A stretch of DNA of 64,000 nt from Lineolata rhizophorae (lineage: Eukaryota > Ascomycota > Dothideomycetes > Lineolatales > Lineolataceae), in the NCBI GenBank assembly GCA_010093515.1, contig MU001699.1:117388-181387 (forward strand), written 5' to 3'. The notes under the pieces were generated by a model. It was not told the DNA's origin. It worked only from the letters and a program-made list of their open reading frames with translations, and ran no database searches. The translations under genes and the position numbers were made by a program. Below, piece after piece: positions 14,973 to 31,137 of this stretch (the stretch's first letter is position 1; each line of letters starts with the position of its first letter).

Positions 14973-15767
14973 TCACGCCTCCGCATGCCTCTCCACCTCC
15001 TCGAGCACAATCTGCGCGCTCGCCGTGAACGTGTGCGCGCCCAACAAGCTCGCAATCTCCAGCACCTCGGCGACCTGCTCCCTGGTCGCGCCCAGGTCGA
15101 GCGCGTTGTGCATGTGCACCTTGAGCCCCGGCGCGTACAGGTGCGTGGCCGCGCAGTCGAAGGCGCAGTACACGAGCTCCTTGTACCGCGGCTCCAGCGG
15201 GCCCGTCTGCCACGGCAGGCTCGAGTACCGCACGTACCCCTCGAAGAACTCCGGGTCCAGCGCCAGGAACTCCTCCCAGAAGCCGTGCCAGTAGCCCCGG
15301 TTGGCCACGAAGTCGGCCTTGAGCCGCGCCCGGTACGGGTCCGTCGCCGTCGCCGTCTTGTCCTCCTCCGCCGCGCCTTCCCCCGGCACCGCCTCCCCCC
15401 GCTCCCGCAGCACCTGCATCAGCAGCGGCACGCCGACGTTGCAGGCGTGGATGCCGAGCGTGCTGGTCAGCTCGAGCGTCTCGACGACCTCGGCGGGGGA
15501 GGCGCCGGCGCGCAGGGCGGCGCGGACGTGGGCGCGGACGCCGGGCACGTGCAGGTGGGTGGCGGCGGCGCACACGGCCAGGTGGACGAGCTCCTGCACC
15601 TTGGCCGGCAGGTGGCGCCGCGTCGCCGGCACCGCCCGCCACGCCACGTACGCGCCGAAGTAGGCCGGGTCGAGCTGCAGGACCGAGGCCCACGCGGGGC
15701 TCCAGACGCCGCCGAGGGATTCGAAGCGGGCTTTGAGGGCGTGTTGGTCGGCGGTTAGGGCTGTCAT
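14973..15767 (-). CDS. Two-domain carboxymuconolactone decarboxylase family protein (CMD1)
   Basis: One exon, 264 residues; the Met at 15767 is the first after an unlikely leader frame. Two tandem CMD-type helical units are visible. Unit 1 (about 50-120) contains KVQELVHLAVCAAATHLH then GVRAHVRAALRAGASPAEV. Unit 2 (about 175-255) contains YKELVYCAFDCAATHLYAPG then HMHNALDLGATREQVAEVL. The family covers PcaC-type decarboxylases and AhpD-type peroxidases. The CxxC redox pair of AhpD is absent (unit 2 has CxxxC), so peroxidase activity looks unlikely. It is transcribed divergently from HIBADH1, sharing a 564-bp spacer that carries CGGGGTAG at 16079. The substrate is unknown; decarboxylase or isomerase chemistry on a lactone or keto-acid is inference from family and neighbours. 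Confidence 0.85.
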   Translation of the reverse strand: MTALTADQHALKARFESLGGVWSPAWASVLQLDPAYFGAYVAWRAVPATRRHLPAKVQELVHLAVCAAATHLHVPGVRAHVRAALRAGASPAEVVETLELTSTLGIHACNVGVPLLMQVLRERGEAVPGEGAAEEDKTATATDPYRARLKADFVANRGYWHGFWEEFLALDPEFFEGYVRYSSLPWQTGPLEPRYKELVYCAFDCAATHLYAPGLKVHMHNALDLGATREQVAEVLEIASLLGAHTFTASAQIVLEEVERHAEA

Positions 15768-15842
15768 GGTGGGTGGGAGGGAGGGGGTAAGAAAGGTAGG
15801 CGCTGTTTTAAAGACGAGACGAGGAGAGTAGGTTGATGTTGA

Positions 15843-15868
15843 GGTAGGTAGGTAGGTAGGTAGGTAGG
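15843..15868. repeat. GGTA tetranucleotide microsatellite
   Basis: About six and a half tandem GGTA units lie 76-101 bp upstream of the CMD1 start codon, probably within its 5' leader. Confidence 0.85.
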
Positions 15869-16078
15869 TGGTTTGCAACTGATAAGTGACTCGAGTGTTC
15901 AGCGTCTATGATAGCAACATGAGAGCTTTCAAGGAGAAATTAAGTAAAACCACCCTAAGAGACTTCAATTGTTTAGCTTCTCCTATCCAAGGGCCTACAG
16001 TGGACGAATTCACTTGCCCCGCCATGCCCCACTTTCTACTGCCCCTCGCTCCCTTTTCCTTCTCCAAGGGTCCAAGTG

Positions 16079-16086
16079 CGGGGTAG
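16079..16086. promoter_or_regulatory. CGGGGTAG motif copy 1
   Basis: Exact 8-mer in the divergent CMD1/HIBADH1 promoter. With the preceding G it reads GCGGGG, which also fits the CreA/Mig1-type SYGGRG consensus. See the finding on the shared motif. Confidence 0.45.
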
Positions 16087-16331
16087 CAATAACCGACGCA
16101 AGAGGGCCCTCTTCTCCAATGCTGAGCCCGTCTTTCCGTGCTTTATTCTGGGAATGCACGGTTCCTGAGGACCTAACTTTGGTGCTGCATATACATAGCC
16201 GTAATCGCGTAGCGTGGCTTGGGACTTCTTTCTGTTGACATCAGTCTCGCATCTAGTCTTTTTGAGTGCTTAGACACACGACCGAGAAACCAACAGTGAT
16301 TTCCGCTCCATCTCGTCTTCACGTCACCAAG

Positions 16332-17537
16332 ATGACTTCGCCGGCAAAGACGGTCGCCTTCATTGGTGCGTGTGGCAACAGGGGAATTTCTTTTTCATCC
16401 CTACGCAAATTGTTATGCTCTGTTACCGCGGCGGCTAACAATGCAATTTGTAGGCCTTGGAGTCATGGGCTACCCCATGGCAGTGAATCTCCGGACCAAG
16501 ATGCCCGCGGACCAGACGCTGCTCATCTGCGACGTGAGCAAGGACGCCATCGCGAGATTCCAGGCGCAAATGGCGGGCAAAGGGGCCGTCGAAGTCGTCG
16601 GTAGCGGGTTCGATGCCGTGGCCAAGGCGGTACGTGCGATCCAAGTTTGCACTCCTTTCGTAACTCAAGCCCCTCGCCCGGGGGAATGAAAGAAATAATC
16701 CCCCCTTTGTACTGACGCGCGCCCGCGTGCCCGGCCTATTCCTCCGAAAAGAACATGGTGATCACCATGCTACCGGACTCGTCGGCCGTCAAGAAAGTCT
16801 ACCTGGACCCCAGCAACGGCATCCTAGCGGGCGCCGTCGCCGCCGCCGCCCAGGCCGCCCCGCACCACAAGATCATCATGGAGTGCGGCACCATCGAGAC
16901 GGCGACGATCCTGGAGGTGGCCAAGGCGGCCAAGGAGACGGCGGCGACGCTGGCGGCGGGCGCGGGGCTCGAATTCGTGGACGCGCCCGTGTCGGGCGGC
17001 CCGATGGGGGCGGAGAACGGCAGCCTGACGTTCATGGTAGGCGCGGACTCGGGGCCGGCGTTCGCGGCGGCGCGCGAGGTGCTGCGCACCATGGGGCTGC
17101 GCGACAGCGTGTTCCACTGCGGGCCCATCGGCGCAGGCACCGCCTTCAAGGTGATCAACAACTACCTGTCGGCCATCACGTCGCTGGCGGCGGCCGAGGC
17201 GCTCAACATCGGCGTCAAGATGGGGCTCGACCCCGGCCTGCTGACGGACGTGATCAACGTCTCCGGCGGCCAGTGCTGGGTCACGAGCAAGAGCAACCCG
17301 GTGCCCGGCGTCCAGCCCAACGTGCCGAGCTCGAGGGGGTACGAGGGCGGCTTCAGGATCGAGCTGTGCAGGAAGGTGCTGGGCATGGGGAGTCAGCTGG
17401 CCGACATGGTGGGCGCGAGGACCATCCTCGATGCGCCGACGCTGAAGGCGTTTGATGAGGCGATTGCGGACGAGAGGTATAAAGGGAAGGACGCCAGGGT
17501 GGTGTATAAGTTTTTGAACGAGAGCGAGAGGAAGTGA
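16332..17537 (+). CDS. 3-hydroxyisobutyrate dehydrogenase-type beta-hydroxyacid dehydrogenase (HIBADH1)
   Basis: Three exons (16332-16365, 16454-16629, 16752-17537) give 331 residues in frame. The N-terminal Rossmann motif FIGLGVMGYPMAVNL is interrupted after FIG by intron 1. DAPVSGGPMGAENG is the substrate-binding signature of the family, and GAGTAFKVINNYL carries the catalytic Lys and Asn. The C-terminal all-helical domain follows. The family oxidises or reduces beta-hydroxyacids and their semialdehydes with NAD(P); the substrate cannot be told from sequence. It is a paralogue of HIBADH2 (25240-26289), sharing NPVPGV, GY.GF and ARVVYKFL/SRVVYRYL segments and the position of its second intron. 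It is divergent from CMD1 and convergent with MBL1. Confidence 0.92.
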
Positions 17538-17953
17538 GTTCTTGGGCCTAGCTTGTAGGAAGCAGGGACACGATGGGTAGATAGATGGCTGGGAGTCCCG
17601 AAATTGAACTGCATGTATATAGGTTTGGATGTAGACTTATTCATCGATAGTCTTGGAGCAGTTGGTCGTCGACTTAATTTGCCTAAAGGGAACAATAGAG
17701 TGGGTTTTGGTTTGTGAACTTATTCTACGTGCTTTGTCCTACTTGCAGGAGCACAAGCTGTGTCTATTGCCGTATCGCTCATCAATGACTTCAATACAAT
17801 CATGGTGGACCACATTTTTTTTATTTTTTTTTGGCGAACCTTACACTACTCTCGCATCTTATTTGTGCTCGAACTTGGGTGTATGATCAAGACATTCACC
17901 CAATCTATCTTCCACTCCTAACTATATACAACATCAAAACATTCCAACAGATT
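17538..17953. other. 3' convergence zone between HIBADH1 and MBL1
   Basis: 416 bp between convergent stop codons. It contains a T-rich run near 17814-17832 and nothing else recognisable; presumably it holds both 3' untranslated ends. Confidence 0.5.
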
Positions 17954-18991
17954 CTACAACTTCCCCGGCCAAAATCTATCTCTATTCTTCTCCCTCCACA
18001 CCTTATCATGCGCCACTATAACCTCCATCTCCACGACTCCCGCGCCCTCCTCGACTACATCCGCGCTCCCCAACAACGACCGTATCCTCCCCACCGTATC
18101 CCTCGCCGCCTCCGTATCGACATGCACGCTCCTCAACCCCCCATGTCCATCATCATACAACGCGATGCCCTTCTCGCCCGTCAGAATCCTCGGATCATGG
18201 CAGCAGTCCCCGCCCAAGAAGACCCACTTCCGCGGCCCGGTGCGCGCCAGCAAATTGACGTGCCCGTACAGGTGCCCCGGACTATCCACGACGAAGACGC
18301 TCCCGTCGCCAAACAGGTCGACAACGGCGGGGAAGACGGCGCCGTCGCCCAGCGGGCGCCAGGCGTGCGCGGTGCGCCTGTCCGGCGGCGCCGCGCGCGC
18401 GGCGTCGTCGGCGCCGCGGCCCGGCACGGGCGGCAGCTCGCGCGTGCGCCCGGCCGGCACCTCGTCGCCGGCGAAGATGTCGCGCGGGTAGTGCGGCGGG
18501 GCGCCGTGCGCGAGCAGGTGCAGGGTGCCGGGGCCGACGACGAAGGCGGCGGCGGCGAAGTCGGCGGCCGTGCCGACGTGGTCCCAGTGGGCGTGGCTGA
18601 GCAGGACGACGTCGACGTCGGCGGCGGGGTCGAGGCCGCCGGCGCGCAGGCTGTCGCCGCAGTCGGGCGCCAGGACCGTGGGCTGCCGGTTCGCGATGTG
18701 GGCTTGCTGGGCCGGCGCGTACTGCGTGAGGTCGCGCTTGAGGCCGAGGTCGAAGACCAGGTTCGTGAGGCCGCGGGCTGGGTTGTCGAGAGGGCTGGTG
18801 CTGGAGGACGTCGTGGTGGTGGAGCAGGGGTGGCGGATGAGGAAGGAAAGGGAGGGCACGGTGGCCCGGACGGTCTTGTCGGCGTCGGATATGAAGAGGT
18901 GCTCGGGGAGGGTGAGGTGGCCGGCGTCGAGGGCGGAGATGGTCACGTAGGTTTGGTTGGGGGAGGCGGCGGGGAGGACGACCTTGGGCAT
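17954..18991 (-). CDS. Metallo-beta-lactamase-fold hydrolase, lactonase-like (MBL1)
   Basis: One exon of 345 residues. The metal site is complete: SHAHWDHVG (HxHxDH), PGHLYGH, the bridging Asp in GGDCCHD, and a last His in IVAHD. The sequence from SALDAGHLTLPEHLF to the C-terminus aligns by eye with MBL2 (26989-28303), so the two are paralogues. The pattern, with a GDCCHD-type Asp and a C-terminal AHD, resembles the AHL-lactonase/MBL hydrolase group more than true beta-lactamases. Hydrolysis of a lactone, lactam or ester is family-based inference. The gene is divergent from the alcohol dehydrogenase across 459 bp. It lacks the intron that interrupts the metal motif in MBL2. Confidence 0.9.
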   Translation of the reverse strand: MPKVVLPAASPNQTYVTISALDAGHLTLPEHLFISDADKTVRATVPSLSFLIRHPCSTTTTSSSTSPLDNPARGLTNLVFDLGLKRDLTQYAPAQQAHIANRQPTVLAPDCGDSLRAGGLDPAADVDVVLLSHAHWDHVGTAADFAAAAFVVGPGTLHLLAHGAPPHYPRDIFAGDEVPAGRTRELPPVPGRGADDAARAAPPDRRTAHAWRPLGDGAVFPAVVDLFGDGSVFVVDSPGHLYGHVNLLARTGPRKWVFLGGDCCHDPRILTGEKGIALYDDGHGGLRSVHVDTEAARDTVGRIRSLLGSADVVEEGAGVVEMEVIVAHDKVWREKNRDRFWPGKL

Positions 18992-19450
18992 TTTGGGGGT
19001 TGGAATTGGAACAATTGCCCGCTTACAGTAGGTATCTTTACTTTGACGACTGCACTTACGGTTTGGAGTGCTTTAGATATTCTCGCGATAGTATCTTGTT
19101 TTACACACATGCACTTGCAACCAACGAGTCCCGTGACGGCGCGTGGTCCATCACTTGTCCTCAGATAGCCTCGGTTGGGGAAGGCCGTTGGAGAACCCCA
19201 CCACCATGTATGTACACCAGCCCCGCATCGCGTGCCCCATTCCGACGCCCCAGCCGCGATGCCGTTATTTCCGCCGCGCCCCATTGGGCCAAGCTTGGTG
19301 TTCGCTCAGCCTTCAAGGGTCTTCCAATGCATCACTCCGGCCACTCAACAACAGAGCTCCCAATTGACTAAACCAACCAATTTCACTCCGCGAAACAAAC
19401 CTCGCACTCAACACCACCGAACCCACCTCCTCCACCGCGGCCTCTCCGCC
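18992..19450. promoter_or_regulatory. Shared promoter region of MBL1 and the alcohol dehydrogenase
   Basis: 459 bp between divergent starts. I do not find the exact CGGGGTAG word here, but GGTTGGGGAAGG (about 19171-19182) has a TTGGGG core like sites of Adr1-type two-finger factors. A similar GTTGGGGAAG lies upstream of the permease near 31148. Confidence 0.45.
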
Positions 19451-20584
19451 ATGGCTCCACCCACAATGTCAACGACAGAAATCCCCTCCACAATGCGCGC
19501 TCAATTCCTCGACTCGTACAACGCCCCCTTCGCCCTGCGCACCGCCCCCGTCCCCGCGCCCACCGACCCCCACGACCTCCTCATCAAAGTCGACGCCGCC
19601 TCCTACTGCCACACGGACGCGGTGCTCGCCGCGGGCGCCATGCCGCCGCACCCGCCGGCCTTCCCGCACGTCTGCAGCCACGAGTTCGCCGGCACCATCG
19701 TGCGCGCCGGCCCGGCCGCGCCGGCCGACCTGCAGCCCGGCGTACCCGTCGGCGTCCCCGGCCGCTCGCTGCACCCCTGCGGCACCTGCTTCGAGTGCGC
19801 GGCCAGCCCGCGCTTCGACGCCGATCCGCCCGGCTACTCGGTGGACTGCCCCAGCGCGAGCAACAACGGCATCAGCGCCCACGGCGGCTTCCGCGAGTAC
19901 GCCGTCGTGGACGCGCGGCAGGTGGCGCCGGTGCCGCCGGCGTTGAGCCCCGTCGAGACGGCGCCGCTCATGTGCGCCGGCGTCACGGTTTACGCGGCGA
20001 TCCTGAAGAGCGGGGTTAGGAAGGGGCAGAGGCTCGGCATCATGGGGTGTGGGGGCGGGCTGGGGCATTTGGGTCTGCAGTTCGCGACGAAGATGGGGCT
20101 GAGGGTCACGGGCGTGGATGCGGCGGATGGGCCGCTGGCGCTGGCGAAGGGGTTGGACACAGGGGCCGACGTAGTGGATGCGCGGAAGGAGAAGGCGGAG
20201 GAGGTGAGGAGGAGGCTTGGGAAGGAGGATGGGAAGGAGCTGTTGGGCGAGATGGGGTTGGATGCTGTCATTATTCTGCCCGAGAGCCAGCAGGCATTTG
20301 ATTATGGCGTAGACATGCTGAAGAATCATGCTAAGTGCGTAGTCGTGTCGTTTCCGCAGAAGGGGTTCCAAGTGTCAGCGTTCTCGGTGGTATTTAGGGA
20401 TATTACTGTCGTGGGAAGCTTAGTTGGGAGCAATAAGACGCTGAGAGAGATGCTGGCGTTTGCGGCGGAACACAACGTTAAGGCGGTACTGAGAACGTAC
20501 CCCCTGTCGAAACTGAATGAGTTGGTGGAAGAGTACCACAAAGGCTCCGGAGGGAAATTGGTGGTCGACATGTCGCTAGAATAA
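19451..20584 (+). CDS. Zinc-dependent medium-chain alcohol dehydrogenase
   Basis: One exon, 377 residues; the first Met of the plausible reading is at 19451. The catalytic zinc ligands are visible as CHTDAV and CSHEFAG (His-Glu retained). The structural zinc lobe has CGTCFEC followed by an unusually long loop before DCP, so the fourth Cys is displaced compared with the usual spacing. The nucleotide-binding turn is GCGGGLGHLG. The C-terminus is typical of the MDR family, near YPLSKLNELVEEYHKGSGG. The family oxidises alcohols or reduces aldehydes with NAD(P). It shares a promoter region with MBL1 and faces the C2H2 regulator tail to tail, 216 bp apart. A role as a redox step of the surrounding block is inference. 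Confidence 0.92.
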   Translation: MAPPTMSTTEIPSTMRAQFLDSYNAPFALRTAPVPAPTDPHDLLIKVDAASYCHTDAVLAAGAMPPHPPAFPHVCSHEFAGTIVRAGPAAPADLQPGVPVGVPGRSLHPCGTCFECAASPRFDADPPGYSVDCPSASNNGISAHGGFREYAVVDARQVAPVPPALSPVETAPLMCAGVTVYAAILKSGVRKGQRLGIMGCGGGLGHLGLQFATKMGLRVTGVDAADGPLALAKGLDTGADVVDARKEKAEEVRRRLGKEDGKELLGEMGLDAVIILPESQQAFDYGVDMLKNHAKCVVVSFPQKGFQVSAFSVVFRDITVVGSLVGSNKTLREMLAFAAEHNVKAVLRTYPLSKLNELVEEYHKGSGGKLVVDMSLE

Positions 20585-20800
20585 TAAGGGGCTGAAGAAA
20601 TGCATCTCAAAAATCGTTAGCGTAATGAACGTCTCGGATCGTGCTATGTACAAAGTAGTACCCAATACAGTCTCCTACATGTCAAAATGCGCCTACAGTC
20701 CGGCCTTTCGCACAACTAGTGGTATAGCCAAGCCTAGTCAGCGATATTAGAAGCCCAAATAACGAAAATGACCCCCTCCAATTAGCTCCAGAACCTACCC

Positions 20801-23529
20801 TCACCCCGCCTCCAACATATCCGCATAAATATTCAATGACGTCCCAATAACATCGACAATGGCCCACGTCTGCGCGCCCCTAAAAATTGCGCCCCAAACC
20901 CTTAGCACGCCCGCGCTCAAATGCTTCAGCGTCTCGGGGCTCTCGAGCGGCGCGTCGCACGGCACCGCGAATTCGGTCTCGTCCAGCATCGTCTTGACGA
21001 CGCCGACGATGCGCCACTCGTCGTTGGTGACGGGCAGTCCCGGGTCCGGGTTCGCGAGGGCGCCCAGCCACTTGCTGAGCAGGAAGGCGCACTCGAGCGA
21101 GCACAGCGAGTGCTGGATGCTCCAGATGAAGGCCTGCGTCTTGGCCACGAGGCGGATGCCGATCTTGACGGGGATGCTGAGCGAGTGCGCCGAGTGGAGG
21201 GCCGCGCGGACCAGCTTGGGCGTGCGGCGGATCGGCAGGCTGTCCTGGAACGCCTTTGCGATCTGCACGGGGTCGCGCGTGTCCAGCCCGCGACCGGGCC
21301 CCGTGTCCACGTTGAGCCGGATGTAGGCGAGGCGCAGCAGCGCCGTCGAGTTGAAGGCCACCGGCCCGTTGGGGTCCATGGGGTCCAGCGACGACTCCGG
21401 GTTGCGCTTCCAGCCGATCTGCCAGTTGCGCAGCGCGAGCTCGAGCTGGGCCACGTCTTCGGCCGCCAACTCGCCGTCGCCGTCGAACCGGCACCGAGCC
21501 GTTTGCCGCACAAAGAATATATGCTGGATCAGCGCGTGGATCAAGATGTAGTTGCCCAACGACGAGTTCCACTCCGTGATGTCGCGCCCGCCGCGCGAGA
21601 AGAGACGCCGCAGCGCTTCTTGGAAGCCCGCCGGCCGGTGCGCTTTGCGGCGGGCTTCGCGCCACTCGGTCGCGCTGGTAGCTTTGAATTCGGCCGAACT
21701 GGCAGGTAGGGGTAGGCTGAGCTCTGAGTTGAGGAGGAGAGGAGGAATGTTGTAGACGATGCAATGAAGGTTGAAGAAGCAGAAGACTATCAATTTGGTT
21801 CGCTTAATTGTTTCGGCGTGCAGCCAATCAGTCCAGGAGATGTCGTCGGGCATTGGCTCAGTCTGGAGTCCGTCGTCCCGCACCAGAGTGGCTAGGATGC
21901 TTTGGATGGCTAGCGCTTGTCGGAGGATCTCCTTGTGTTTTGCCCAGGTCGCCATGGCCATCAAAAGGAGCAGCGCTTGCGCTGTTTGCATTAAGTCCTC
22001 CCGTTCCGGCAAGTCCAATTCGGAAGGAAGTCCTAGCGGACCGGAGGCTGGTTGACTGTGAACCGAACCGTTCGAGGTCGGCGCGCCGGACGGCACTTCA
22101 GTTAGTCCATTCGACGCCGGCCGATCTGATTCAGTGCTTCGATGATACGCCGCCAGCCTCGAATCCCGCCGCCTGATCCTTGCCGTAGCAATGGCCTGGC
22201 TGGCGTGGAAGAGCTCGACGCCTTTATCACCTTCGAAGCAGTATTGCGCACCTACGGCAGCCATAGCGAGCAACAATTCGACAGAACAGCTTTCAATCGA
22301 CATTGTGGGTAAATGAAGGAACGGCAGATGCTCGTGGAAGCCGTTAATGTAGCCGGCAACGTATCTGGAAAGAGCCAAGCGCGAGGGAAGCTTGAAATCC
22401 GGAGACACTACGGAGGTAAACTCCACCATCTTCAAGAGGATGCCTTGTCTGTCGTCAAGCGATATATCGGATATGGTTCGACTAGGAGAAGGAGCTTGCG
22501 GTTGAGGTGGAGGAGGGGTGTCTTCCGGCTGAAGAGACGGAAGACGCGACCCGAAACATGAGAAAGTATTTTGTTCTCCAAGATTGTTTCGGCCATCGCC
22601 ATTGAAATTTGGAAAGTCCTGGTGCGAGCTGGACTGAGGGACGAAATCAGTGGCGTAAGTTAATGACTCCGGCGAAAAGAATGGCATCGGTTGTTCCGCG
22701 TTGATCAATGACGAGAAGTTATATGAAGAGAGCGGTCCATTGTCAAGGAAAGTGGCGAGGTTATTTAACGACTCTTCGAACTCCAGCCCAGGGGATCGGG
22801 TATGGCCTGCGGGCTGGATGGCATGAATGGGTTCAGCTGGAGCCTGCACAGGCTCCTCCTGCGCTAGGGGCATGTTTGGCGTAAGCTGATGAGGCTGTAC
22901 CGGAGGATCACCGTAGCCATTCTCCAGCGCGGCCCGCTCCGCGGCCATCGACAGTGTCGCGAGTAGAGAGTCATCACTATTCTGGGCATGCTCGGGGTTG
23001 GATGGTTGAGGTTGTGTGGAATCGCTGTGGAGAGGAGCGCTTCCCGGGTCGTATGGTGGCGGCGGAGCTGATGGCGGCGACATGTTTTGATCGTTTATAC
23101 CTTCTATAGTAACAGTCCGCCTTCTCTTCGTCGGTCTGTTCGACCCATCACTGCTCTGTGCCTGCGGCGCATCTTTGTTGTGTGACAGCCGCTCGTGGCG
23201 TATGAGCAGGTCTCTTTGGGTACGTCAGACGAACAGCGTCTCCAAGCTTCGAAGGGTGGCAGTGCACGCACCTTCTGGTAAACCGGTGGTCACACAGAGT
23301 GCAACAGAAGGGTTTCTCTAACGTATCTACACCGGACATTTGGTTAGCCTTCTCCAATGTTCCGCTAGCATACCGAACGAGGGCGCGTCCATATCAACAT
23401 ACGGGTCCGCTCATGGCGCTGCAGATGCTCCAGCCTGGCAAACAACCTCTGGCAGTGCTGGCATTGAAACCGTTTCCGCTTCTTGCCAGCGCTGTGGTCC
23501 GTGTCCGGGACTGCGGCGGCCTGCGACAT
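20801..23529 (-). CDS. C2H2 zinc-finger transcription factor with fungal regulatory middle domain
   Basis: Three exons (23403-23529, 23272-23326, 20801-23213) give 864 residues in frame. The two small 5' exons build two classical fingers. Finger 1 is FQCQHCQRLFARLEHLQRH plus ERTH. Finger 2 is FCCTLCDHRFTRRDLLIRH plus ERLSH. A basic stretch (KKRKR before the fingers; TKRRR after) suggests nuclear import. Residues from about 320 onward match the fungal-specific transcription factor domain (PF04082 type), with PSRLALSRYVAGYINGFHEH near its start and several hydrophobic helices. Two-finger C2H2 factors with this middle domain usually bind GGGG-type cores. Its central place in a nine-gene metabolic block suggests it is the pathway regulator, which is inference. 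A start further downstream at 23083 would delete both fingers and is wrong. Confidence 0.92.
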
Positions 23530-24154
23530 GCATGAAATAAAGGCGTGCGTGCCACGTGGGAAACCGGGGGAAAGAGGGGTTGATTGGCTCGTGCGGAATC
23601 AAGGGTGGGGGCAAGGGCATGGGAAATTGGAGTGTGAGTGCCGACGGATGCTGGCTGACAGCTCGATCGCGCGGTCGCCGGGTGAAAGAACCGTTGGAGT
23701 CGTGTCTGGGAGAAAGGAATGCGAGTTAGTGAAAAATCCGGGGATGTGGAGTTGAGATGCGGGGGTCCAAGCTCGGGTGCCGACGAATTACCGGGCGTCC
23801 GCACTATCACTCTCGGGGCTTAGTGACTCCGGGGCCCCACCCGCCGGCGCAAAGCTTGTCGCTCACGATGGATTCAATGGAGCCACCCGAAGAAGTGATC
23901 CCGCCAAGATCTCGTGAACACATATTATGATCTAGTCTTTAAAGAGCTTGTGGGGCTGTCGAAAGGCTTGAAATCACAAGCCTCCAGGCAGAGAGCTTGT
24001 GCTCTTTGAAGCTGGCGTCAACTCCAGGAGATGAAAATCCGTCTATTCTTTTCTAGAGCCCAGAACATTCTTTCCTTGCACTATGATATCCCTCCAGCAC
24101 GTATATCGCATCCGTAGACCCGAAGCAAGAAAATTCTAAGCCGCGCTTTCTCTC
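23530..24154. other. Promoter side of the C2H2 regulator and 3' side of CMD2
   Basis: 625 bp. It contains GGGG words (CCGGGGATG near 23740; CTCGGGGCTTAG near 23814; CTCCGGGG near 23827) but no exact CGGGGTAG. No coding gene is seen. Confidence 0.45.
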
Positions 24155-24601
24155 TCACTTCGCCTGCTCGCCCAACTCCCTCGGCATCTCCCCCTTCTCC
24201 GCCATCTCATTCAGCACCTTCTCGGCCGTCTTCATCGCGTCCACGCCCGCGGGGACCCCGCAATACGTGGTCGCGTGCAGGATGGCCTCCCTGATCTCGA
24301 GCTCGGACAGACCGTTGTTCCTGGCGCCGCGGACGTGCACGGCGAGCTCGGGCGCGCGGTTGAGCGCCATGAGCATGCCGATGTTGAGCAGCGACCGTTG
24401 CTGCTTGCTCAGCCCGGGCCGCGTCCAGGCGTAGCCCCAGCACCACTCCGTCACGAGCTCCTGCCCCGCGCGCGAGAACTCCGTGTTGCCGTTGGCCAGG
24501 GCCCGGTCCACGTAGGCGTCGCCGACGACGCTGCGGCGCATCTTGAGGCCTTCGTCGAAGAGCTGCTTGTGCAGGTCGTTGAACTTTGGGTCCGTCGACA
24601 T
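24155..24601 (-). CDS. PcaC-like carboxymuconolactone decarboxylase family protein (CMD2)
   Basis: One exon of 148 residues, close to the length of bacterial PcaC. Family features in order are [18 protein letters not shown], then [20 protein letters not shown], then [20 protein letters not shown], then [20 protein letters not shown]. These resemble gamma-carboxymuconolactone decarboxylase of the beta-ketoadipate pathway better than AhpD; there is no CxxC pair. Fungal protocatechuate catabolism normally uses a different route, so a PcaC-like protein here probably acts on another substrate. That is inference. Two tandem CTACCCCG words lie 322-338 bp upstream. A CCA-repeat leader directly precedes the ATG. 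Confidence 0.92.
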
Positions 24602-25239
24602 GGTGGTGGTGGTGGTGGTGGTGGCTGTTGCGGGGTTGCGGGGTTGGGCTTTTGAGATGAGATGGACGGTCTGGATGAGATGGATTCGCGAGATTGGATA
24701 TGGCTGTTACCAAAGAGGGTCGCAATTTGACTCAATTGGTGCTTGCGTTGTGTGGTGCTACAAAGGCCTGGAACTTGCAGAAGTTTGCAATATATCAGTG
24801 AGGCCCAAAGACTCGCGCCATCCAGGAGAATGTTCGGACGTTTTCGGGCCCAAGAGAAGGTCACTCGTGACATGTTGGGGCTCTCGGGGGTGAGGCCCGC
24901 CCCGGGTCCGTACCCCACATTGCTACCCCGACTACCCCGACCAACCACGTCAGGCGTGCCAAGCCTACCCTCCGCCCAATGTACGAGCTCACAACAGAAG
25001 AAATGCGCGTTGGCACAAGACTCAGTTACCCTAAAATAAAACATACAAATAACGCTCCAGGAATAGACAGCTAGGAATGAGAATTGAGTGAAAGGAGTTC
25101 CGATGATTGGACGATTCCGAGATTCGTGATGCAATGCACCTGATCGCGTGGTTCTAAGATTGATCTTTCTACGCTTCTATATCCCATTATGCTAACCAAT
25201 AATTGCAAACCTAGCCCTACACCAAACCATCTAGCCCAA
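24602..25239. promoter_or_regulatory. CMD2 promoter and HIBADH2 3' end
   Basis: 638 bp between two minus-strand genes. It carries a tandem pair of CTACCCCG (24923-24930 and 24932-24939) plus a related GTACCCCAC at 24910-24918. The right part is AT-richer and probably the HIBADH2 3' untranslated end. Confidence 0.5.
24923..24939. promoter_or_regulatory. Tandem CTACCCCG motif copies 2 and 3
   Basis: Two exact copies in direct repeat with a 9-bp period (24923-24930, 24932-24939), upstream of CMD2. Confidence 0.5.
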
Positions 25240-26289
25240 CTATAGCATACCATTTGGATGATCCTTTTGCCATTCCTCATTCCCACCCAAATACCGATAC
25301 ACGACTCTCGAATCCAAGTCCCTGCACCTCGGATCGTTCATCGCCCCCGTATACGTCTCCAGCCCCGCCCCGCCCAACACGTTCTTCGACCCCACCCTCT
25401 TCGCCATCTCGACCGCCAAATTGAAGTCCTTGCGCATCAGCTGCACCTTGAAACCCTCCCTATACCCGTTCGACGACGGGGCTTTGGCAAACACGCCCGG
25501 CACCGGATTGAACCGATCACAGATGGTATTCTGGGCGGTGCCGGCGGCGAAGACCTGCGCGAGCACGCGCGGGTCGAGCCCCGACCGCATGCCCATGTCC
25601 ATGGCCTCGGAGCACGCGATGGCGATGATGCCCGACAGGTAGTTGTTGGAGAGCTTGGCGGCAAGGCCCAGCGACGGCCCGCCACACGGAATCACCTTGC
25701 CGCCCATCAGGCTCAGCAGCGCGGTCAGCCGCGCCAGGTTGGCGTCGGTCGGGTGGCAGCCGAGGAAGAAGGCGATGGTGCCGTCGATGGCGCCCACGAC
25801 GCCGCCGCTCACTGGCGCGTCGTAGAAGGATGCCGTGGCGAAGCGTGTCGCGATGTGGTCTTTCACGGCGAGGCTGGTGGCCGTGTCGATGGTCGAACAG
25901 TCGATTAGGAGCTTGCCGTTGATGTCGGTGGCGCAGATTCCGTGCGTGGAGTCGAGGTAGACAGAGCGCACGTGCGAGCCTTCGGGCACCATGGTTATTA
26001 TGATTTCCTATGAGGCAGTCGATTGATTCATGGTCAGTTCGTTCTGTTGAATGAGTGTATTTGGGCCCACTGGGGGGCTTACCGCCTTCTGCGCGACATC
26101 CTTAGCATCACTGCCCTTTAGAATCCTGCCGGGGTACTTCTCGCAGAGCTGGTCTATCGCGGCCTGCACGACATCGAAAACGTATATTCGCGTGGTCTCG
26201 GGGAGCTTGTTCGCCAGGTGCTCCACCATGGGCCTCCCCATGGCGCCCAAGCCGACGAAGCCAACGGTCGAATAAGTGAGCAATGCCAT
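25240..26289 (-). CDS. 3-hydroxyisobutyrate dehydrogenase-type beta-hydroxyacid dehydrogenase (HIBADH2)
   Basis: Two exons (26083-26289, 25240-26007) give 324 residues in frame. The Rossmann motif is VGFVGLGAMGRPM. The substrate-binding signature is YDAPVSGGVVGAIDG. The catalytic Lys region is LAAKLSNNYL. The C-terminal helical domain includes NPVPGVFAKAPSSNGYREGF. Its single intron (26008-26082) sits just before EIIITMVP, the same place as intron 2 of HIBADH1 before NMVITMLP, which supports common origin by duplication. The start at 26289 is the first Met matching the family N-terminus. It is divergent from MBL2 with a 699-bp spacer carrying CTACCCCG. The substrate cannot be predicted. Confidence 0.92.
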
Positions 26290-26988
26290 TGCGCACACTC
26301 ACTTTTGTCTCATCCCACGATGTCGAGTTTGCGTTCGTAAGAGGCACAAAACAAAGACACAATCTTAAAAAGACTCCAATGTCAAACGCGACACAAAAAA
26401 AGGACTTGCAAGAGCCGCCTTCTACAGCCGCACGCGAGGGTCGTCGGCGACGAGCCGCGAGTTGGAGAAGGTCGATTTGGGCCGAGCCAGGGCGCCGCGG
26501 GGAGCCCTCGCGCGGGGTCCATTGTCCCGACGCCAAGTGCGCGCGCCGGACCTCTCCCGGCCCCACATTACGGGCGTCAAGCCGCCGCCAGCAGTGGCGA
26601 CACGAACGGGCTCCATCGCGTGCTTTGAGTACCTTACGTGGGGGTAAATGTCGAGTCCGCCGCTAGGCAAGTGAACGGTGTGCAACGGCCAGTGCCTTCG
26701 CTCTACCGGACTACCCCGAAGAAGCCGAATTGCCTAGTCCAGCGACTCCTGCAATTACGGAACTCCATGTCTTAGGGGGCTACTGGCTACCCATGGCTCT
26801 GGATTCCGCGGCCGAAAATAAGTTAAAGCCATGTTGACTTTGTCACTTCCAGCCGTATAGCGTGTGCCGCGAAGTCCTGCTGCAATTGACAGCAGCCGTT
26901 CACTGTTTGTTGTTTGTCGTTGTAGCTCGCCGCTCGGCGACCCTGCCCTCCGTCCCCCACAGCGAGTCATTCGGCCTCCCCCCCCACC
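26290..26988. promoter_or_regulatory. Shared promoter region of HIBADH2 and MBL2
   Basis: 699 bp between divergent starts, with one CTACCCCG (26711-26718), 422 bp from the HIBADH2 start and 271 bp from the MBL2 start. No coding gene is supported, although open frames cross it. Confidence 0.55.
26711..26718. promoter_or_regulatory. CTACCCCG motif copy 4
   Basis: Exact 8-mer in the HIBADH2/MBL2 divergent promoter, in the context CCGGACTACCCCGAAG. Confidence 0.45.
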
Positions 26989-28303
26989 ATGTCTACCATC
27001 TTCGTGAAGCAGGCCGCTCCACCCACGCCGCCCCTTGAGCGCGCCACGGCGACAGTCCACGCCCTCAACGCGGGATACCTCACCCTCCCGGAGCAACACT
27101 TCGTAGCGCCGGCGTCGGACACTGCGCGCAACACGGTGCCGTCGCTGTCTTTCCTGCTCACTCATCGTGACATCGACACGGGGAAACTGACGCGCATCGT
27201 GCTGGACCTGGGCATCCGGCGAGACGTGGACCGGTATGCGGAGCCCATCCGGCGCCATGCGGCGACGCGGCAGCCGCTGACGACGGACCCGGACGTGACG
27301 AAGAGTCTGGCGGCTGGCGGGCTGACCCCGGACGATATCGACTATGTCATCTACTCGCACGTAAGGAAGATTTCCCGTCTAATCTGAAATGTTGTGACCG
27401 TCCCTTTGTCCATGGGACCAATCCGCCCGTCTGTCTCGAAGCCATTTTCGAGGTAACAATGACGTTCAATTGCTCCCTCCTCTCTCTCTATCGCACTCCC
27501 ACCAGTTCCCTTCCAGTCCCAGCAGCACCGAAGGCAAAAAAGGCCCACCCGGCCTTCGCTTCAGTACCCCTTCGCTAACATCCTTCCGACCACCCTCCCA
27601 GGTGCACTGGGACCACGTCGGCGAGCCCCGCGACTTCCCCCGTAGCACTTTTGTCGTCGGCCACGGCGCCCTGGACCTCCTACGCGGCACCTCCTCGTCC
27701 CTGCGCGGCGGCCACTCCTTCTTCGAAGCGGACCTGCTCCCACCTCTACGCACGATCCAGCTACGCGACCCCAACAACGGCGACAGCGACGGCCCCGCCG
27801 CCACCGCCGCCACCAACGGCCTCGCCGCCAAGCTCGGCGAGCCCGACTTCGGCCAAGCCTGGGCCCCGCACCCGCACTTCGCGCTGCCGCGCGTCATGGA
27901 CCTCTTCCAGGACGGCAGCGTGTACGTCGTGGACGCGCCCGGGCACCTCCCGGGACACATCAACATCCTGGCGTGCACGTCGGCCGCCGGTCCCGGCGCT
28001 GGGCCCGCCGGCGCCGGCGCCGCGTCGTTCGTCTACCTGGCCGGCGACTCGTGCCACGACCGGCGCATCGTGCGCGGCGAGCGCGCCATCGGCGAGTGGA
28101 GCGACGCCGAGGGCCACGTGTGCTGCATCCATGCGGACCGCGCGAAGGCCGAGGAGACGATCGAGCGTATTAGGGGGCTGGAGGCGGCTGGGGTCGAGGT
28201 TATCTTCGCACATGATGTCGAGTGGGTGCAGAGCCCGGGGAACAAGGGGAGGTTTTTGTCGAGGGAGAATGGTGCGGTGGGGGGGAAAGGCGGGGAGTTG
28301 TAA
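26989..28303 (+). CDS. Metallo-beta-lactamase-fold hydrolase, lactonase-like (MBL2)
   Basis: Two exons (26989-27360, 27602-28303) give 357 residues in frame. The 241-nt intron falls inside the metal-binding motif, between SH and VHWDHVG; splicing restores HxHxDH. Further ligands are PGHLPGH, the Asp in AGDSCHD and the His in IFAHD. It is paralogous to MBL1 along its length (for example [10 protein letters not shown] against VPSLSFLIRH, and [16 protein letters not shown] against DLFGDGSVFVVDSPGH). The family hydrolyses lactones, thioesters or lactams using two metal ions; the substrate here is unknown. It is divergent from HIBADH2. The first part ([14 protein letters not shown]) lacks signal-peptide character, so a cytosolic location is likely. 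Confidence 0.92.
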
Positions 28304-29100
28304 AGAGCAGCATGGGTGTTGCTGTTTGGGTAGCTGGTAGAGCACCGTGTTTTATGGATGCTAGTGCATTTTGCGGTTTTTAGAACCGGAGAAATACCAT
28401 GTGCATTGTTGTTGTTTGGAGTTGCGGAGAGGTTTCTGTGGTTATGTTGTTCATATCTATTGCGCGTATACGTAGAAGCATTATATATTTGAGCTACGAA
28501 TTTATGAATGTTATAAATTCATGGAATTGGGTTTAACGTCATTTCGTTGAACTGGAGTTTTTTTTCTGCAAGTTCATACTTAGCATGACAGATTTTATGG
28601 TTCTTTGGTATACTTGTAGAAATATTCAGTATTTTTAAGCGCTTAGTATACAAATGCACAAACATGTTCCAAGACAACAAAATTGTGTTCTTCTGCGTCT
28701 TAAATGGTTTTTGAGATGAAGTAAAGTACCCTTCTTGAAAATGTAGCGTCGGTCTTCTAATATGCTACACACAATTTGAAGGTATCAATTAGGGGACTTA
28801 TATTGCAAATTTCCCAACCCGGTCACTTCTACAAATCTAGTTTTTATGTTGGCTTAATCATTTGAAATCCCACTACTAGTATATTCAACGTCACATGACT
28901 ATAACGCTGATAAATTGGAGTGTCAACCAACATATAGCACAATATGTTGTTCTACGAGATATGCTCTCTGGACATACAAGCGTCCACAATGTCTTCAAAC
29001 TATCAGACTCAAAAACCCGCCCACCGTGAATCGGCCACCCGCAGTTGCCACATATAGAAATGTACGTCGGTACATCCCCAGCACCCACCAACTCCGCCCA
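28304..29100. other. AT-rich spacer between MBL2 and the permease 3' end
   Basis: 797 bp between convergent genes. It is clearly AT-richer than its neighbours, with no coding potential. It may contain both 3' untranslated ends. Confidence 0.5.
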
Positions 29101-30884
29101 CTAGAAATGATACCTAAAGTCTGGCGCGCGATCCGTCCACTCATCCCGCTCCACAACCAACCCCTCCGTAATGGCCTTATCCTTCCACGCCTCCCTGCGC
29201 CTATAAATCGCCCGAACGACCCACCACCCACACCACGCGACGACCAAGCAGCCCATGCTCCACGAGTGGCCGAGGATGAAATCCGGCGCGCTCTCCGTCT
29301 GATAAATCTGGCCGGCGACGATGCCCCCGATGTTCGTCAGCGTGAGTAGGATGCCGACGCTGCCCGCGCGCTTCCCGTCGGGCGCGCAGTTCGACGACAG
29401 CCAGGTGATGTTGGTGCCGGTGCAGAGGAAGCACGCAATGGCGATGAGGTAGGTTGCGAAGTATTTGACGCCGGCCGCGAGGCCGGAGGGGCCGGCTGCG
29501 ACCAGGATGGCGTAGCCGGCGATGCCGAATGGGGCGCAGCTTATCAGGGAGATGAAGCGGTTTTTGTAGCGGTCGCAGAGGACGGCGCCGACGCCGTAGA
29601 CGATGGCGCCCCAGATGTTGACTGAAGGTGAGGTTAGTTAACTACGTGGTTGAAAGGGACCAAAAAGAACGCCTACCTGGAATGACAAGATATTGAGCCT
29701 GCACGGTTGAGTAGTGAAATCCGTCCTTGATAATGATGGGTAGGAAAGTACCAAAGCCTGACCATAACTGTTAGTAGTTCTATTGTTTTGGAAGTGGTAA
29801 TGAAATTTAACAACTTGCCGTAGAGAATAGTGACGACACAAATTTGGATGATACCGTGGACCCAAGTCTTGATATCCTTGGCGGCTCTCTTGATGTCCTG
29901 GATCGTGTAATGACCCTGGCCGCCGCTGTATGCCTCCATATGCTCGGCGCGTTGCCGCATGATGGCCTTCTCCTCAGCGTTTAGGAAATAGGCAGTCTGG
30001 TAGTTTTTGGGCACAAGATACAGACACATCCCGGCCCAAATGAGTGTGATAACACCCTCAATAATGTAGAGCCTTAAATATCTCAGCGTAATCTCTTTGA
30101 AGAAAGCAATCGATCTTGAACTTACCATCGCCAACCAGGGTAGCCACGGGTGCCATCCATGTAGAGGATCGCCCAAGCTAGAAGACCACCAAAGGCACCA
30201 GACAGCGCGGAAGCGACTAGGTCGATGACGTTAGCTAGTGATCACCTTGGAGTCCGTTGATAGCCATTGAACTTACTGAAAAGATACGAGATTCGCACTC
30301 CCAGCTCCTCGCGCTTGTACCAATTGCAAAAGAACAGGGTCATCGAAGGGAAAAGGCAGCCTTCAAAGAACCCGAGCAGGATACGGGTGACAACGAGCCC
30401 GGCGAAGTTTTGCACGAAGCCGGTGCACATGCATACAAGGCCCCATGAGAAGGTGATAAAGGGAATGACGCGATTGAACTGGAACCGCTTGACGAAAATG
30501 GACGCCGGGAACTCAGCAAGGACGTAGAAAACGTAAAAGACGGAGATGGCGGTCTAAGAGTGTCGCGCTTGTCAGCAACTTCATCTCGTCCGTTCAACTG
30601 CACTCAAAAATTCTACTGACGTTGAGTTGACCGCCCTCCAAGTCAATGTCTTCCGACATGCCCTGAGTCGCAGCAAACCCAATATTCCCTCTATCGAGGT
30701 AACTAATGAGCATTAATAGCATCATGACGGGCGCGACGAACAAGTCCAGCTTGCGCACAAGCTTGGCTTCCTTCTTCTTGAACTCGAGCTGCTCAGGCGT
30801 CTCAGGCGTGCCCTCATCCACATACTCGAACTTCTGAACATTCTGATCCGCCTGCATCTTTTCGTCTGCAACAGTGGAATCCAT
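29101..30884 (-). CDS. MFS permease, anion:cation symporter (ACS / allantoate permease) family
   Basis: Six exons (30621-30884, 30277-30553, 30126-30216, 29819-30072, 29677-29757, 29101-29621) give 495 residues; every join keeps frame. The ACS signature SYLDRGNIGFA follows transmembrane segment 1. Other family marks are RILLGFFEGCLFPS, FGGLLAWAILYMDG, the central loop with KNYQTAYFLNAEEKA, FGTFLPIIIKDGF and a C-terminal end APDFRYHF. Fungal members carry small organic acids, vitamins, ureides or nicotinate-type compounds across the plasma membrane. Exon 4 ends at a GC donor (GCAAGT), giving a GC-AG intron (29758-29818) with a TACTAAC branch site. The start at 30884 follows two poorer upstream codons. 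CTACCCCG lies 246 bp upstream. It is the probable importer for the neighbouring enzyme block (inference). Confidence 0.93.
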
Positions 30885-31129: not shown

Positions 31130-31137
31130 CTACCCCG
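31130..31137. promoter_or_regulatory. CTACCCCG motif copy 5
   Basis: Exact 8-mer 246 bp upstream of the permease start. Its complement reads CCGGGGTAG, so it also fits SYGGRG. A second GGGG word (GTTGGGGAAG) follows about 10 bp later. Confidence 0.45.

What the first reader, a model, noticed from the sequence alone, without database searches (positions are those of the whole stretch)
14973..30884. Nine-gene catabolic-type block with three enzyme families each present twice around a C2H2 regulator
Seen: CMD1, HIBADH1, MBL1, alcohol dehydrogenase, C2H2 regulator, CMD2, HIBADH2, MBL2 and an ACS permease are contiguous with no unrelated gene between them. HIBADH1/2 and MBL1/2 are paralogues by eye; CMD1/2 share a family but differ in form (two-domain against PcaC-like). 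Known: MBL-fold enzymes open lactones, CMD proteins decarboxylate lactone or keto-acid products, HIBADH and ADH do redox steps, ACS permeases import organic acids. Inferred: a dedicated import and ring-opening pathway, perhaps with two parallel arms for related substrates. I know of no described pathway with this exact set, but I could not search. It is the best candidate here for an undescribed system.
Basis: partly seen in the sequence, partly recalled or inferred. Interest (0 to 1): 0.88.

Follow-up and report, generated by a model that had tools for sequence, protein, structure and literature searches.

The report
Fungal lactone-catabolism regulon mirroring bacterial operons
A mangrove fungus carries nine neighbouring genes that look like one co-regulated pathway for importing and breaking down a lactone or hydroxy-acid, and many bacteria carry an operon with the same mix of enzyme families, so this is probably one undescribed degradation pathway found in two kingdoms.

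Summary
Nine genes run from CMD1 to an MFS permease (14973-30884) in Lineolata rhizophorae, with paralogous HIBADH (37%) and MBL (40%) pairs and two unlike CMDs. Three further results support one functional unit. (1) Of 76 bacterial loci found with CMD1, 59 carry MBL + HIBADH + CMD1 + CMD2; 62 carry two or more HIBADH genes and 15 the full doubled set. Acidiphilium plasmid pACRY02 shows the set as a same-strand gene run. (2) The word CTACCCCG occurs five times in the 64-kb window, every time in one of the block's promoters, in 4 of 6 promoter regions; 0.08 are expected there from its genome-wide rate, and no such confined 8-mer arose in 6000 control placements. Fungal CMD1 is nested among bacterial CMD1s, suggesting bacterial origin. 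Likely mechanism: import, lactone formation, MBL ring opening, beta-hydroxy-acid oxidation, CMD decarboxylation. Substrate, chemistry and the two-arm idea are not shown. I found no paper describing the set. Conservation of the other fungal genes could not be tested.

The parts
14973..15767 (-). CMD1, two-domain carboxymuconolactone-decarboxylase-family protein (264 aa, one exon)
   Evidence: 241 bits to PDB 2q0t; nested among bacterial CMD1s
16332..17537 (+). HIB1, beta-hydroxyacid (3-hydroxyisobutyrate-type) dehydrogenase, exons 16332-16365, 16454-16629, 16752-17537 (331 aa)
   Evidence: identical to a named L. rhizophorae protein
17954..18991 (-). MBL1, metallo-beta-lactamase-fold hydrolase (345 aa, one exon)
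   Evidence: H133, H135, D137, H138, H240, D262, H328 invariant in 33 aligned sequences; best PDB sequence matches are AHL lactonases and 4-pyridoxolactonase
19451..20584 (+). ADH, zinc alcohol dehydrogenase (377 aa, one exon)
20801..23529 (-). Regulator: two C2H2 fingers + PF04082, exons 23529-23403, 23326-23272, 23213-20801 (864 aa)
   Evidence: fingers match yeast ADR1 among many other zinc fingers (2adr, 66 bits)
24155..24601 (-). CMD2, PcaC-like single-domain CMD (148 aa)
   Evidence: TIGR02425 136.4 bits, cut-off 155.7; up to 58% identity to bacterial operon CMD2
25240..26289 (-). HIB2, beta-hydroxyacid dehydrogenase, exons 26289-26083, 26007-25240 (324 aa)
26989..28303 (+). MBL2, metallo-beta-lactamase-fold hydrolase, exons 26989-27360, 27602-28303 (357 aa)
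29101..30884 (-). MFS permease, six exons (about 495-501 aa; one acceptor site uncertain)
   Evidence: PF07690; TIGR00893 200.8 bits, cut-off 395
16079..16086 (-). CTACCCCG, CMD1/HIB1 divergent promoter
24923..24939 (+). CTACCCCGACTACCCCG, tandem copies upstream of CMD2; the 17-mer is unique in the genome
26711..26718 (+). CTACCCCG, HIB2/MBL2 divergent promoter
31130..31137 (+). CTACCCCG, upstream of the permease

Best explanation
The block is one regulon for using a lactone-forming hydroxy-acid as carbon source, equivalent in enzyme content to a bacterial operon. The permease imports the acid. ADH (SDR in bacteria) oxidises an alcohol or lactol to a lactone. MBL1/MBL2 open the lactone at a dinuclear metal site. 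HIB1/HIB2 oxidise the beta-hydroxy acid to a beta-oxo or formyl acid with NAD(P)+. CMD1/CMD2 remove CO2 or rearrange the product. The C2H2 regulator, with ADR1-like fingers, is proposed to act through CGGGGTAG sites in the block's promoters. Shown: gene content, shared promoter word, bacterial gene sets, indirect MBL1-HIB1 linkage. Inferred: substrate class, order of steps, regulator-site pairing, activity of every enzyme.
For: Bacterial loci found with CMD1: HIBADH in 68 of 76, MBL 66, CMD2 61, cupin 59, SDR 56; MBL+HIB+CMD1+CMD2 in 59; two or more HIBADH in 62; full doubled set in 15. Background: 91 PF14833 matches in 83.0 Mb of 10 of the 76 host genomes, 0.018 per 16.7 kb. Nearest HIB on the CMD1 strand in 67 of 68, MBL 63 of 66. 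Annotated runs: pACRY02 CMD2-HIB-MFS-MBL-SDR-HIB-cupin-CMD1; Sodalis pHS1. Promoter word: 5 of 5 window copies in 3.6 kb of block promoter, 665 in 30.97 Mb; 0 of 3000 shifts and 0 of 3000 random placements gave such an 8-mer. Metal ligands invariant. Linked fungal pair. An FMO-like gene family (Baeyer-Villiger type by recalled motif; one member scanned) in 6 of 76 loci fits lactone formation.
Against: Fungal HIBs (best-scoring matches 34-36%) and MBLs (MBL1 no BLAST hit to the operon MBL family, MBL2 five, the best short; profile match 97.5%, 22% identity) are not operon orthologues, so the likeness there is at family level. No cupin or NIPSNAP is in the block. The word is absent from the MBL1/ADH and regulator promoters, was first picked by eye, and its total of five in the window is only mildly unusual (5 of 100 shuffles reach it). 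In 4 of 6 fungal pairs with comparable locus tags the two genes are 7-8 tags apart. No expression or activity data. CMD-family proteins need not be decarboxylases.
Confidence: 0.6

Rival explanations
1. Two independent modules (CMD1-HIB1-MBL1-ADH and CMD2-HIB2-MBL2-permease) serve different substrates and merely abut.
For: The halves are almost mirror sets; MBL1-HIB1 relatives are linked in other fungi, while only two listed CMD1 relatives carry fungal names; the paralogues are old.
Against: The promoter word spans both halves; bacterial gene runs combine two HIBs, CMD1 and CMD2.
Confidence: 0.2
2. A detoxification or quorum-quenching locus: the MBLs destroy exogenous lactones (AHLs, plant or microbial lactones) and the rest clears products.
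For: Nearest solved MBLs by sequence are AHL lactonases.
Against: NCBIfam AHL-lactonase models score 52 bits or less against cut-offs of 375 or more; the permease and a bacterial MHS-type transporter (TIGR00883 374 bits, cut-off 443) suggest uptake of organic acids, as do Tct- and DASS-like frames recognised by eye.
Confidence: 0.1
3. A variant protocatechuate/beta-ketoadipate branch acting on an aromatic ring-cleavage lactone.
For: CMD2 is close to PcaC (136.4 bits, cut-off 155.7); some bacterial loci flank VOC- or VAO-like genes (recognised by eye) or FMO-like genes.
Against: No ring-cleavage dioxygenase or cycloisomerase in the block; beta-ketoadipate chemistry as recalled has no HIBADH step.
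Confidence: 0.1

Closest known systems
Uncharacterised bacterial operon of CMD2, two NAD(P)-dependent oxidoreductases, MFS, N-acyl homoserine lactonase family protein, SDR, cupin and CMD1 (Acidiphilium cryptum pACRY02, ACRY_RS01400-01435)
   Same: Same enzyme families, doubled HIBADH-type gene, one transporter, one regulator; its CMD1 is 50.8% identical; operon CMD2s elsewhere reach 58%
   Different: SDR where the fungus has Zn-ADH; extra cupin and NIPSNAP; one MBL, not two; GntR not C2H2; HIB and MBL related only at family level; no function known to me
Vitamin B6 (4-pyridoxolactone) degradation (pathway recalled)
   Same: Logic: SDR makes a lactone, MBL-fold lactonase opens it, an NAD-binding hydroxy/formyl-acid dehydrogenase and a decarboxylase follow
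   Different: Pyridoxolactonase model far below cut-off (25 and 36 bits against 325); no CMD in that pathway as recalled
Agrobacterium BlcABC/AttKLM gamma-butyrolactone catabolism (recalled)
   Same: MBL-fold lactonase plus dehydrogenases
   Different: AttM model 44 and 52 bits against 390; no HIBADH or CMD as recalled
Beta-ketoadipate pathway PcaC
   Same: CMD2 is PcaC-like
   Different: Below the PcaC cut-off and without the pathway's other enzymes in the block
Two-domain dualCMD proteins (2q0t; Trichomonas TvCMD1, PMC5615479, passages read)
   Same: CMD1 architecture; [quoted passage not shown]
   Different: Here the dualCMD sits in a conserved catabolic neighbourhood, which points to a role

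Membership tests
Bacterial CMD1-HIB-MBL-CMD2 operon type | CMD1 closely related to and nested among operon CMD1s | tested here: met
   up to 55% identity; clade of 10 rows (SH-aLRT 100) inside a 48-row clade (99) otherwise bacterial or unnamed; quick method, midpoint root, long-branch warnings
Bacterial CMD1-HIB-MBL-CMD2 operon type | CMD2 close to operon CMD2 | tested here: met
   58% over 127 columns; no tree made
Bacterial CMD1-HIB-MBL-CMD2 operon type | two HIBADH of the operon subfamilies | tested here: inconclusive
   two present, but best-scoring matches only 34-36% identical
Bacterial CMD1-HIB-MBL-CMD2 operon type | MBL of the operon subfamily | tested here: not met
   superfamily-level match only
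Bacterial CMD1-HIB-MBL-CMD2 operon type | cupin and SDR in the set (59 and 56 of 76 loci) | tested here: not met
   block has Zn-ADH and no cupin; the cupin matches found in the genome lie outside the block
PcaC 4-carboxymuconolactone decarboxylase | TIGR02425 equivalog score | tested here: not met
   CMD2 136.4 against 155.7; CMD1 37
3-hydroxyisobutyrate dehydrogenase (valine catabolism) | TIGR01692 equivalog score | tested here: not met
   226.8 and 228.6 against 291.6
AHL lactonase | AttM/AiiA equivalog score | tested here: not met
   52.2 bits or less against 375-390
AHL lactonase | HxHxDH plus distal H, D, H metal ligands | tested here: met
   invariant in A2 (which includes MBL2) and A3; ligand assignment recalled from AiiA
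Lactone catabolic regulon | co-induction by substrate and lactonase activity | not testable with these tools
   needs RNA-seq and enzyme assays

The most novel reading that the evidence does not exclude
An undescribed catabolic route (lactone formation, MBL ring opening, two beta-hydroxy-acid oxidations, two CMD steps) for a carbon source used by actinobacteria, proteobacteria and fungi. The fungal version combines a fungal MBL-HIB pair with at least one bacterially derived CMD, under its own C2H2 regulator and operator word.
Probability: 0.45. Interest if true: 0.78.

Novelty: new variant of a known kind. Interest (0 to 1): 0.62.

Why it matters
Two-domain CMD proteins and many HIBADH/MBL paralogues are annotated by family name only; [quoted passage not shown] A gene set recurring in 59 of 76 bacterial loci and mirrored in a fungal regulon gives them a shared, testable pathway context. 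Finding the substrate would name enzymes in many genomes at once, and would show whether a fungal catabolic cluster was assembled partly from bacterial genes.

Tried and rejected
Viral-contig scan with the MBL alignment A2 for fungal DNA context: no relative. The third PF02627 gene (C17) lies in a fetched 10-kb stretch (L094) in which tblastn at 1e-3 found no block protein. The idea of a second full copy on contig C1 was rejected: MBL3 and HIB3 lie 9 kb apart, with P450-, FAD-monooxygenase- and MFS-like frames (recognised by eye) and no CMD match. First neighbour calling by longest ORF looked wrong-stranded in GC-rich loci and was replaced by codon-position scoring and HMM counts on all frames; those HMMs were built from the same loci, so the counts are not independent of the clustering. 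First promoter-word controls were flawed: 29 of 3000 circular shifts hit, the five printed all being shifts near zero, and 24 of 3000 random placements hit, but segments could overlap and be counted twice. The mended controls (shifts of at least 1000 bases; non-overlapping placement; distinct positions) gave 0 of 3000 each. Fusarium benzoxazolinone FDB clusters, nicotinate hxn and ascorbate or tropate catabolism were considered from memory only and not tested. Literature: 10 searches, eight aimed at the set, one at the organism (62), one at gene transfer (67); several returned no or one paper, and searches listed 20 of 97 and 12 of 18 papers. PMC5371717, PMC5716253, PMC5615479, PMC13101518 and PMC6307125 were seen as passages, PMC11898892 as outline and abstract; all others only in listings. 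PMC11898892 argues that interkingdom transfer in Pezizomycotina is rare, which lowers confidence in the CMD1 transfer reading.
Full report
OBSERVATION. I rebuilt the nine genes with introns: CMD1 14973-15767(-), HIB1 16332-17537(+), MBL1 17954-18991(-), ADH 19451-20584(+), regulator 20801-23529(-), CMD2 24155-24601(-), HIB2 25240-26289(-), MBL2 26989-28303(+), permease 29101-30884(-). Pfam confirms every family. HIB1/HIB2 are 37% identical, MBL1/MBL2 40%; CMD1 and CMD2 are not detectably similar by BLAST. The pairs are old: HIB1 has fungal relatives at 75% and MBL1 relatives at 67%, far above the within-block values. The genome is Lineolata rhizophorae by a 100% named match to HIB1. Of ten flanking frames scanned, eight have Pfam matches, to a DHX29-like helicase, ASE1 (two frames), a POT1-like protein, an Arm-repeat importin-alpha-like protein (two frames), UreD and SCC3; two have none.

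CLUSTERING WITHIN THE GENOME. Of three genes with PF02627 matches in 31 Mb, two are here; of six PF14833 matches, two; of three places with MBL1-like sequence, two. The third MBL place lies 9 kb from a HIBADH on contig C1, among P450-, FAD-monooxygenase- and MFS-like frames and with no CMD match.

SHARED PROMOTER WORD. CTACCCCG occurs five times in the window, each time in a block promoter interval: CMD1/HIB1, two tandem copies upstream of CMD2, HIB2/MBL2, and upstream of the permease. I noticed it by eye; a count of all 8-mers then showed it to be the only one present in at least four of the six promoter regions, and it is absent from the 45,420 outside bases counted. In controls with the same six segment lengths, no 8-mer was so confined in 3000 shifts of at least 1000 bases or in 3000 non-overlapping random placements; an earlier, flawed version gave 29 of 3000 shifts and 24 of 3000 placements. 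Shuffling the whole window gave five or more copies in 5 of 100 shuffles, so the total is only mildly unusual; the location is the striking part. Genome-wide there are 665 copies in 30.97 Mb, so 0.08 are expected in 3.6 kb and five were seen (my arithmetic: about 2e-8 for one word, about 1e-3 after allowing for all 8-mers). The tandem 17-mer is unique in the genome; ATTGCTACCCCG occurs four times, twice in the block. The word is missing from the MBL1/ADH and regulator promoters. The regulator's fingers match yeast ADR1 among many other zinc fingers (2adr, 66 bits); ADR1 prefers G-rich sites (recalled), so CGGGGTAG as its operator is plausible but untested.

BACTERIAL COUNTERPART. One search found 1399 CMD1 relatives and listed 120; of the seven listed rows with an organism name five are bacterial and two fungal. 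One scan of GTDB genomes with a 24-sequence CMD1 alignment gave 76 loci. With HMMs built from the neighbours in those loci, present at E 1e-15 or better: HIBADH 68 of 76 (two or more in 62), MBL 66 (two or more in 17), CMD2 61, cupin 59, SDR 56, GntR 50, MHS-type MFS 30, Zn-ADH 17, ALDH 10; MBL+HIB+CMD1+CMD2 in 59; both MBL and HIB doubled with CMD1 and CMD2 in 15. A separate tblastn at 1e-8 with the fungal proteins gave HIB 68 and CMD2 61 of 76, and no MBL. Some loci are cut by contig ends, so absences are upper bounds. The loci were chosen by CMD1, so the figures measure association with CMD1 only. In ten of the 76 host genomes, chosen by me, PF14833 gives 91 matches in 83.0 Mb and PF02627 127, that is 0.018 and 0.026 per 16.7 kb, operon copies included; the tool warns that counts of large families are lower bounds. 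The association is still far beyond chance. The nearest HIB is on the CMD1 strand in 67 of 68 loci, MBL in 63 of 66, CMD2 in 54 of 61, GntR in 34 of 50. Annotated examples: Acidiphilium cryptum pACRY02 has CMD2, HIB, MFS, N-acyl homoserine lactonase family, SDR, HIB, cupin, CMD1, NIPSNAP on one strand, five of the seven junctions from CMD2 to CMD1 overlapping, with GntR divergent beside them; Sodalis pHS1 has MBL, NIPSNAP, HIB, ALDH, CMD2, MFS, HIB, cupin, CMD1, GntR on one strand and a second MBL on the other; Mycobacterium sp. AT1 (L042, my ORF calls) has MBL, GntR, MFS, MBL, SDR, HIB, CMD2, HIB, CMD1. Two further plasmid regions were opened: one Paraburkholderia record had no annotation, the other showed HIB, NIPSNAP, HIB, ALDH, CMD2, MFS, HIB, cupin and the CMD1 match without an MBL in the stretch held.

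HOW CLOSE IS THE FUNGAL SET. CMD1 reaches 55% and CMD2 58% to operon members. The best-scoring matches of HIB1 and HIB2 are 34-36% identical; MBL1 has no BLAST hit at 1e-5 to the operon MBL family and MBL2 five, the best over 63 columns; profile comparison gives 97.5% probability at 22% identity. One further ORF beside CMD1 in Pseudonocardia thermophila (L035) matches MBL1 at 28% over 296 columns. In a tree of 156 CMD1 sequences (120 listed hits plus 36 of 54 locus ORFs that passed a length filter) the window's CMD1 falls with the two named fungal proteins and seven unnamed ones in one clade (10 rows, SH-aLRT 100), inside a 48-row clade (99) otherwise of bacterial or unnamed rows. The method was the quick one, the root is a midpoint, and long-branch warnings apply to P0001, P0002, P0073 and P0116 among others. 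This suggests a bacterial origin of fungal CMD1; a recent survey argues such transfers are rare in Pezizomycotina (PMC11898892, abstract read).

MECHANISM. MBL1 and MBL2 keep the full metal-ligand set, and the best sequence matches of the MBL1 profile among solved structures are lactonases. An FMO-like gene family occurs in 6 of 76 bacterial loci; one member was scanned (FMO-like) and carries a Baeyer-Villiger fingerprint (motif recalled). Transporters for organic acids occur there (MHS type; Tct-like frames in L058, recognised by eye). I therefore favour uptake of an acid, oxidation to a lactone, ring opening, beta-hydroxy-acid oxidation and decarboxylation. The substrate is unknown. Two arms or two consecutive rounds fit equally. 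Structure prediction was asked for five times and never ran.

NOVELTY. Eight full-text searches aimed at the set found no description of it; two papers that hold both CMD and Baeyer-Villiger terms were looked at in passages, and those passages describe other pathways. The library lacks most subscription papers. It is a catabolic gene cluster, a known kind, with an enzyme set I found unreported, seen in two kingdoms.

Noticed in passing
G000:C1:2138143-2147787 (L092, L093): A third MBL-like place and a third HIBADH 9 kb apart near a contig end, among P450-, FAD-monooxygenase- and MFS-like frames; possibly a related but different catabolic cluster.
   Followed up: partly
G004 (host genome of L023, Pseudonocardia kujensis): CMD and HIBADH matches lie within about 1 kb of each other at four separate places, suggesting several paralogous operons.
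   Followed up: no
L006, L010, L011, L013, L022, L073: A family of FMO/Baeyer-Villiger-like genes near CMD1 (one member scanned); a DUF6282 gene was identified in L010.
   Followed up: partly
L035 10430-11206: Relative of the fungal MBLs (28% to MBL1 over 296 columns) beside CMD1 in Pseudonocardia thermophila.
   Followed up: no
Bacterial loci, e.g. L005 5450-5848: Operon cupin scores 123 bits to the (R)-mandelonitrile lyase model, cut-off 140; its role beside CMD genes is unexplained.
   Followed up: no
NZ_CP099998.1 282815-283480: A 40% CMD1 relative on a plasmid record of Natronosalvus halobius.
   Followed up: no
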